Shown here: piece after piece, positions 44,045 through 44,678 of the stretch
Numbering within the stretch: the stretch's first letter is position 1
Layout: each line of letters opens with the position of its first letter
Source of the DNA: an uncultured Flavobacteriales bacterium
GTDB lineage: Bacteria; Bacteroidota; Bacteroidia; Flavobacteriales; Crocinitomicaceae
Reading direction: 5' to 3'
Length of the DNA stretch: 64,000 bases
Assembly (NCBI GenBank): GCA_946482515.1
Contig: CAMLRS010000010.1
Location: 57,922 to 121,921 of the forward strand
Notes under the pieces: generated by a model
Database searches by the model: none
The model's input: only the letters and a program-made list of their open reading frames with translations
Told to the model about the DNA's origin: nothing
Position numbers and translations under genes: made by a program

Positions 44045-44068
44045 TTTTCACCACAAAAGGCACAAAAG
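44045..44068 (+). repeat. left terminal inverted repeat of the GxxExxY unit
   Basis: A 24-nt arm starting TTTTCACCACAAAAGG and ending CACAAAAG. The right arm at 44656-44678 is its reverse complement apart from one A. It starts 9 nt after the lipoprotein stop codon. Confidence 0.85.
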
Positions 44069-44141
44069 TTTCTTTTGGATGCGCTGGGTTTGGTTCGAAG
44101 CATCCGCCTCAGGCGGATTACACAAAAGACGAACTTCGATT

Positions 44142-44543
44142 TTAGTATGCCGGGTATAATCCATTCACCATCGTTTTCTGACCGGATTTCAACAGATTCG
44201 TTGCATTGAAATTGTACAGGATTCCTTTCGGAGCACTTAGTAATTGCATGTAGGTCAGCAATTGTGCCTGATGAACAACCAGAAGCTCGGCAACTGTTTT
44301 CGTTTCAATAACGATGCAATCTTCAACAAAAAAATCGCATCGAAGCAGGCCATCTAAAGCCTTTCCTTTATAGACAATAGGAATCGAAAGCTCCGATTTA
44401 AAGCGGATGTTCCTATTATTGAGTTCTTCTTCCAAACATTTCTGATAGATATTTTCCAGTAAGCCTGGCCCAAGAAATTTGTGGACTTCAAGTGCAGCCG
44501 CGTTCAATTCGTAAGTAAGATCGTACAAGAATTGCTTATTCAT
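44142..44543 (-). CDS. GxxExxY protein (PDDEXK_3-type nuclease-like)
   Basis: A 133-residue protein with the family signature G27-L-L-E30-N-I-Y33 in FLGPGLLENIYQKCLEEEL. A PD-(D/E)xK-like core follows: D70 in LLRCDFFVED, E80-T-K82 in CIVIETKTVAEL, then HQAQLLTYM. The C-terminal KGILYNFNATNLLKSG is standard for the family. The fold implies a nuclease-like domain, but no activity or role is established. It is transcribed opposite to the bat and TPR genes and is enclosed by inverted repeats. Confidence 0.92.
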   Translation of the reverse strand: MNKQFLYDLTYELNAAALEVHKFLGPGLLENIYQKCLEEELNNRNIRFKSELSIPIVYKGKALDGLLRCDFFVEDCIVIETKTVAELLVVHQAQLLTYMQLLSAPKGILYNFNATNLLKSGQKTMVNGLYPAY

Positions 44544-44655
44544 GTAAACAGAGGTTTACTTGAATATACGGATTAATTATCAGAAAACCAATCCCTTTTG
44601 TGTAGGCTTCCGCTGTGGCGGGAGGCGCTTTCAATTACGCCAGTATGTCACCTGT

Positions 44656-44678
44656 CTTTTGTGCCTTTGTGGTGAAAA
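44656..44678 (-). repeat. right terminal inverted repeat of the GxxExxY unit
   Basis: A 23-nt arm, CTTTTGTGCCTTTGTGGTGA then AAA, the reverse complement of 44045-44068 with a single missing A. Confidence 0.85.

What the first reader, a model, noticed from the sequence alone, without database searches (positions are those of the whole stretch)
44045..44678. GxxExxY gene enclosed by near-perfect terminal inverted repeats with nested repeats: candidate undescribed mini-element
Seen: 24- and 23-nt outer arms that are reverse complements except for one A; a perfect inner inverted pair (TACACAAAAG/CTTTTGTGTA); and a mini-palindrome between outer and inner arm on each side. The single gene inside encodes a PDDEXK-like GxxExxY protein on the strand opposite to its neighbours, in more AT-rich DNA. 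Known: GxxExxY proteins (PF13366-like) are widespread in Bacteroidota and lack an assigned role. Inference: the protein may be a nuclease that maintains or moves this repeat-bounded unit, or a domesticated homing-type system. No transposase and no obvious target-site duplication were seen.
Basis: partly seen in the sequence, partly recalled or inferred. Interest (0 to 1): 0.72.

Follow-up and report, generated by a model that had tools for sequence, protein, structure and literature searches.

The report
Repeat-bounded mobile nuclease gene unit
A small protein of unknown role with the fold of DNA-cutting enzymes, found in many bacterial phyla, turns out to sit inside a mobile unit whose two ends are mirror-image rows of short repeats, and short copies without the gene are scattered through some genomes.

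Summary
The arms are real, far beyond chance, and recur across the family. GxxExxY genes (TIGR04256/PF13366) are often bracketed by inverted arrays of 2-4 tandem units of about 8-10 nt. Unit type differs between elements but is shared by both arms of each: 111 of 154 loci pass the arm threshold, against 42 of 1,848 mismatched flank pairs. The window's unit is CACAAAAG. Between elements at unrelated sites homology stops at the outer arms. At orthologous sites in Flavobacterium and Chryseobacterium the unit is present, replaced by another GxxExxY unit, gene-less, or (Flavobacterium) absent. Window-type arms also end 113-193-bp gene-less elements in Chryseobacterium. Three unit positions follow the protein tree. 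The protein (predicted Cas4-like fold, conserved catalytic residues, dN/dS about 0.05) is constrained. Best reading: a mobile element with miniature derivatives, working like REPIN-RAYT but built on a PD-(D/E)XK nuclease and tandem-unit ends. Mobility as a unit is well supported. That GxxExxY moves it is inference: no target duplication was found and arm-type/gene-type matching across genomes is only partial. The window's own site could not be tested for an empty allele. No paper found in my searches describes the association.

The parts
44045..44068 (+). Left outer arm: TTTTC + units ACCACAAAAG, GCACAAAAG
   Evidence: sequence; inverted repeats I4 and I5
44102..44118 (.). Perfect mini-palindrome ATCCGCC-TCA-GGCGGAT in the 50-nt spacer of the left arm; its 13-nt core CCGCCTCAGGCGG occurs once in the window
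44119..44128 (+). Left inner unit TACACAAAAG
   Evidence: I14
44142..44543 (-). GxxExxY gene, 133 aa, PD-(D/E)XK fold with D70, E80-x-K82, Q94-x3-Y98 conserved
44595..44604 (-). Right inner unit (reverse complement TACACAAAAG)
   Evidence: I14
44605..44626 (.). Imperfect mini-palindrome in the 51-nt spacer of the right arm
   Evidence: read
44656..44678 (-). Right outer arm: reverse complement TTTTC + ACCACAAAG, GCACAAAAG (one A fewer than the left arm)

Best explanation
The 634-bp unit is one copy of a family of mobile elements. Shown for the family: a single gene for a small PD-(D/E)XK (Cas4/RecB-like) protein lies between two inverted arrays of tandem 8-10-nt units; the outer arms are the ends of the block that is shared between unrelated sites; orthologous sites differ by presence, replacement or absence of the unit; gene-less copies with the same ends are dispersed. 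Inferred: several GxxExxY molecules bind the tandem units of both arms (about one per helical turn), bring the ends together and cut at or near the outer units, after which host repair or replication copies the unit into AT-rich intergenic DNA without a fixed target duplication. The protein acts in trans on gene-less arms, as RAYT transposases are thought to act on REPINs. Each clade of the protein has its own unit sequence because protein and units change together.
Against: No target-site duplication was detected (92 loci), and the closest empty/full pair is not clean at the junction. Among the fetched loci no near-identical GxxExxY genes at different sites of one genome were seen, apart from a tandem pair in L145; several elements are old, vertically kept residents. 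Arm-type/gene-type matching between genomes is partial: 54 window-type arms in G012, where none of its three GxxExxY loci shows that arm type; 122 CACGAAG-type arms in G013, where no GxxExxY locus with such arms passed my threshold (CACGAAG-like units do lie beside L145); only 2 each, the element's own, in G001 and G002. Unit-tree agreement would also arise if gene and arms simply travel together. dS near 1.1 is close to saturation. 43 of 154 loci, the window among them because of its one-base indel, fail the ungapped arm threshold. TIGR02436 genes have the same architecture without this protein.
Confidence: 0.6

Rival explanations
1. The arms belong to a mobile repeat system driven by some other, unlinked enzyme or by host replication slippage; GxxExxY (and separately the four-helix-bundle gene) is a passenger that gains by riding in it.
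For: TIGR02436 four-helix-bundle genes also lie between inverted tandem-unit arrays, with other units of about 7-8 nt (18 of 30 loci at score 14 or more vs 5 of 320 mismatched). Gene-less arms are numerous, also where no matching GxxExxY was recognised. Some arms in Flavobacterium enclose ordinary-looking genes.
Against: Unit sequence follows the GxxExxY protein tree at three positions; catalytic residues and purifying selection are kept. The window unit holds no other gene.
Confidence: 0.25
2. GxxExxY is a resident host nuclease regulated through the arrays (autoregulation, or transcript ends), and the arrays are regulatory or terminator sequences rather than transposon ends.
For: Strong purifying selection and long residence at one site across a genus; arms often lie close to gene ends and some look like terminator hairpins (by eye).
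Against: Homology stops at the arms between unrelated sites; empty and replaced alleles; dispersed gene-less elements with similar interiors.
Confidence: 0.1
3. A homing-type system: GxxExxY cuts the uninterrupted site and the unit is copied in by repair.
For: Alternative GxxExxY units occupy the same site; PD-(D/E)XK homing nucleases exist (I-Bth0305I appears, E 0.17).
Against: GxxExxY genes lie at many sites in one genome and the empty sites read show no array.
Confidence: 0.05

Closest known systems
REPIN-RAYT (TnpA-REP) systems
   Same: Distinctive single-copy nuclease genes with little lateral transfer at species level, flanked by short repeats; many gene-less inverted pairs of the same repeat elsewhere; proposed action in trans and coevolution (PMC3116915, part of abstract and passages read)
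   Different: RAYTs are tyrosine (Y1) enzymes and the repeats are single palindromes; here the enzyme has a PD-(D/E)XK fold and the ends are inverted arrays of tandem 8-10-nt units that differ from clade to clade
Insertion sequences with MITE derivatives
   Same: Terminal inverted repeats, gene-less derivatives, empty sites
   Different: No known transposase domain in the window unit; no target duplication found; ends are tandem arrays
Cas4 / RecB-type PD-(D/E)XK nucleases (SSO0001, 4ic1)
   Same: Nearest solved fold and, from recalled motif knowledge, the pattern D...ExK...Q-x3-Y
   Different: About two thirds of the size (133 vs about 203 residues) and carried inside a repeat-bounded unit; CRISPR linkage not examined
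23S rRNA intervening-sequence proteins / four-helix-bundle family TIGR02436
   Same: Small gene between inverted tandem-unit arrays, multi-copy in the same genomes
   Different: Unrelated protein fold (recalled) and other units, mostly about 7-8 nt period
TnsA of Tn7 and PD-(D/E)XK homing endonucleases (recalled, not tested)
   Same: PD-(D/E)XK nucleases that take part in DNA mobility
   Different: TnsA works with TnsB/TnsC; homing nucleases usually act at one site

Membership tests
TIGR04256 / PF13366 GxxExxY | Score above curated cut-off over nearly the whole model | tested here: met
   124.1 bits vs 35; 120.8 vs 22
TIGR04256 / PF13366 GxxExxY | GxxExxY motif and PD-(D/E)XK catalytic residues | tested here: met
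   G27, E30, Y33, D70, E80, K82, Q94, Y98 invariant or nearly so in 59 sequences
Insertion sequence / MITE | Terminal inverted repeats marking the ends of homology | tested here: met
   (for relatives; the window's own ends have only the inverted repeats)
Insertion sequence / MITE | Target-site duplication | tested here: inconclusive
   No excess of direct repeats outside arms, 92 loci; arm ends defined only by the inverted match; junction of the closest empty site not clean
Insertion sequence / MITE | Empty sites in relatives | tested here: met
   8 of 30 classified loci; 14 of 25 complete loci for a gene-less copy; not testable at the window's own site
Insertion sequence / MITE | Transposase of a known catalytic class | tested here: not met
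   The only gene in the window unit is GxxExxY
REPIN-RAYT | Tyrosine (Y1) transposase | tested here: not met
   Profile hits and fold are PD-(D/E)XK
REPIN-RAYT | Gene-less inverted pairs of the gene's flanking repeat elsewhere in the genome | tested here: met
   In some genomes: arms 35+34 in G007 (20 pairs read) and 34+34 in G003; but only 1-2 per strand in G001, G002, G004
Cas4 | Fe-S cluster cysteines and linkage to Cas1/Cas2 | not tested
   No cysteine or cas-neighbourhood analysis was done; only the fold resembles Cas4

The most novel reading that the evidence does not exclude
GxxExxY is the founding enzyme of a new class of transposable element: a stand-alone PD-(D/E)XK nuclease that recognises clade-specific tandem unit arrays at both ends and mobilises its own gene and a population of miniature elements in many bacterial phyla, with a parallel class built on four-helix-bundle proteins.
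Probability: 0.4. Interest if true: 0.93.

Novelty: new variant of a known kind. Interest (0 to 1): 0.8.

Why it matters
A widespread protein family without an assigned role gets a genomic context and a testable function. The clade-specific units that follow the protein tree give ready-made specificity pairs for DNA-binding assays. If the nuclease moves the unit, it adds a catalytic class to transposable elements and could explain many intergenic inverted repeats of Bacteroidota and other phyla.

Tried and rejected

Fetched loci are the best matches, or were picked by me, so site-state counts are not frequencies. Rows dropped: of 158 nonredundant loci, 4 had too short flanks; 79 of 158 had no unit chain called in both flanks, and the caller looks only for C-A/G-C/T-type units; 59 flank-distinct representatives became 55 tree rows; L282 was not classifiable; 5 of 30 loci were incomplete; L277, L283 and L291 gave no intact frame; four Flavobacterium arms gave no test string. 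That the 31 longer inserts hold GxxExxY rests on reading their ends and, for the 30 loci fetched, on DNA alignment to L014, not on a profile search of each. For six of the nine genomes the GxxExxY genes were not examined.

Full report
OBSERVATION. The right-arm sequence has no other match in 64 kb within 3 mismatches, and shuffles give 0.00. The protein is TIGR04256/PF13366. GC is about 0.40-0.42 inside and about 0.50 outside. Seen closely, each arm is a short tandem array: ACCACAAAAG (ACCACAAAG on the right), GCACAAAAG and, after the spacer, TACACAAAAG.

FAMILY-WIDE ANATOMY. One scan of genome contigs gave 75 loci with relatives. In most, the gene is bracketed by inverted arrays of a unit that reads roughly C-R-Y-N-N-A-G/T, 2 to 4 copies per arm, often after an outer T run: CACAAAAG, CACATAG, CATTAAG, CACAGAG, CACGAAG, CACGAATT, CACAGATT and others (core by reading). 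The gene is multi-copy: 30 of 30 genomes, chosen because they hold a locus, had 1 to 11 matches including fragments. I fetched 80 further regions from some of them. Of 158 nonredundant loci 154 had both flanks; 111 of 154 score 14 or more for inverted arms against 42 of 1,848 mismatched flank pairings. The window itself scores 13 because its arms carry a one-base indel. Where unit chains were called in both flanks (79 of 158), the two arms agree at 6.24 of 7 positions, shuffled partners at 4.75, at most 5.01. Paralogues in one genome mostly have different units. Among the loci, 9 of 10 named phyla have at least one locus over the threshold; many are MAGs, so single-locus phyla are weak.

THE ARMS ARE THE ENDS OF A SHARED BLOCK. 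L033 and L049/L051 (unrelated flanks; L049 and L051 are orthologous to each other) are about 80% identical over a block that begins and ends within about 6 nt of the outer arms. L047/L068 breaks at the left arm; L068 lacks the right side. L008/L013 (a Flavobacterium and a Chitinophagales genome) is 74% identical over a block that starts at the left arm; L008 ends at its contig end. L033/L071 (93%) is less clean, with some similarity beyond the right arm and none at the left arm. Of 697 gene pairs with DNA similarity, 618 show no flank homology.

SITE STATES. The site of L114 was followed in 121 Flavobacterium genomes. Among 31 loci examined (the 30 best plus L080; one unclassifiable), 17 carry element A, 4 a different GxxExxY element B with CRCARAG-like units between flanks 88-96% identical to those of A, 8 are empty with 19-36 nt between the flank anchors, and 1 is a 150-nt remnant. 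Within element A the units shift broadly together in both arms, from CACGAATT-like to CACAGATT-like, between orthologues, with exceptions such as the right arm of L276. At the L089 site one relative has only 55 nt with a plain hairpin and others hold inverted arrays of another unit and no GxxExxY gene. The site of L014, which has the window's unit, was followed in 118 Chryseobacterium genomes. Of 50 loci read, 30 best and 20 picked for a short gap, 27 have a window-type unit, 4 another GxxExxY unit, 19 a 141-300-nt stretch without the gene, often with other repeats.

MINIATURE COPIES. The window-type arm ACCACAAAAGNCACAAAAG (up to 2 mismatches) occurs 35+34 times in G007 and 29+25 in G012, with 0 for the reversed-pattern control there; 13 in G025 and 9 each in G009 and G016, where the control gives 1-2; and 0-4 in the other 11 of 16 genomes. 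Twenty short inverted pairs that I picked from G007, 113-193 bp, have similar interiors in 122 of 190 pairs but similar left flanks in 0 of 190 (right flanks not compared). All 20 have a match in L014, the GxxExxY unit of the same genome with that arm, and 15 of 20 match the L417-type unit, in the rows I read near its inner hairpins. L423 aligns to L417 at the same site except for about 440 bp holding the gene, with 19-nt repeats at the break; deletion is the likely direction but was not shown. Another arm, ACCATATAAGTNATATAAG, occurs 34+34 times in G003 and 24+26 in G005, which hold a broken and an intact gene with that arm, and 1+1 in G004; six further genomes have 29-114, their genes unexamined. 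In 780 kb of G003, 41 inverted pairs were kept; GxxExxY matches lie at two places only, one intact and one broken. The pattern extends beyond Bacteroidota: CACGAAG arms 54+68 times in the Desulfobacterales MAG G013.

WHAT DOES NOT FIT WELL. Arm-type/gene-type matching is partial: G012 and G013 (and G015 with 39 CACGAAG arms) have many arms without a recognised matching gene, G001 and G002 a gene but no other arms. In the 780 kb of G003, arms of its own seven GxxExxY loci have 0-16 further hits (median 7), 17 arms of other genomes 0-18 (median 2); the highest foreign values are of unit types that G003 also has. No target duplication was detected. A gene-less copy at the L379 site has 14 empty relatives among 25 complete loci, but the junction is not clean even with flanks 96 and 91% identical.

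A SECOND FAMILY. TIGR02436 four-helix-bundle genes in the same genomes are also bracketed by inverted arrays, with other units: 18 of 30 at score 14 or more vs 5 of 320 mismatched. So the architecture is shared by two different small proteins, which keeps the passenger reading alive.

MECHANISM AND VERDICT. Shown for the family: a repeat-bounded unit shared between unrelated sites, present, absent or replaced at orthologous sites, with dispersed gene-less copies. Inferred: GxxExxY binds the tandem units of both ends and cuts there, in cis and in trans, with host repair completing the copy. The nearest known way of working is REPIN-RAYT (PMC3116915, passages). It is not a member, since the enzyme class differs. 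No paper found in the searches listed describes GxxExxY with these arms; the library lacks most subscription journals.

Noticed in passing
L234-L263 (regions around TIGR02436 genes): Four-helix-bundle (23S intervening-sequence type) genes are often bracketed by inverted arrays of other tandem units, mostly 7-8 nt: a parallel to the GxxExxY units.
   Followed up: partly
G003 C10 (L194-L233): about 270520-271409, 768968-769758, 774133-775096 of the concatenated 780 kb: Inverted tandem-unit arms of GxxExxY type enclose ordinary-looking host genes instead of GxxExxY.
   Followed up: no
L419-L434 (Chryseobacterium site): A different palindrome (AGATGCTTCGAC...GTCGAAGCATCT) fills the same intergenic site in many of the fetched species lacking the GxxExxY unit.
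   Followed up: no
L145 (Desulfobacterales MAG G013, contig C99): Two identical GxxExxY copies about 870 bp apart in a tandemly duplicated stretch rich in other repeats, possibly an assembly or amplification event.
   Followed up: no
L028 vs L086: Flanks are homologous by tblastx in swapped orientation while the two GxxExxY genes show no DNA similarity: a site perhaps occupied independently by two units.
   Followed up: no
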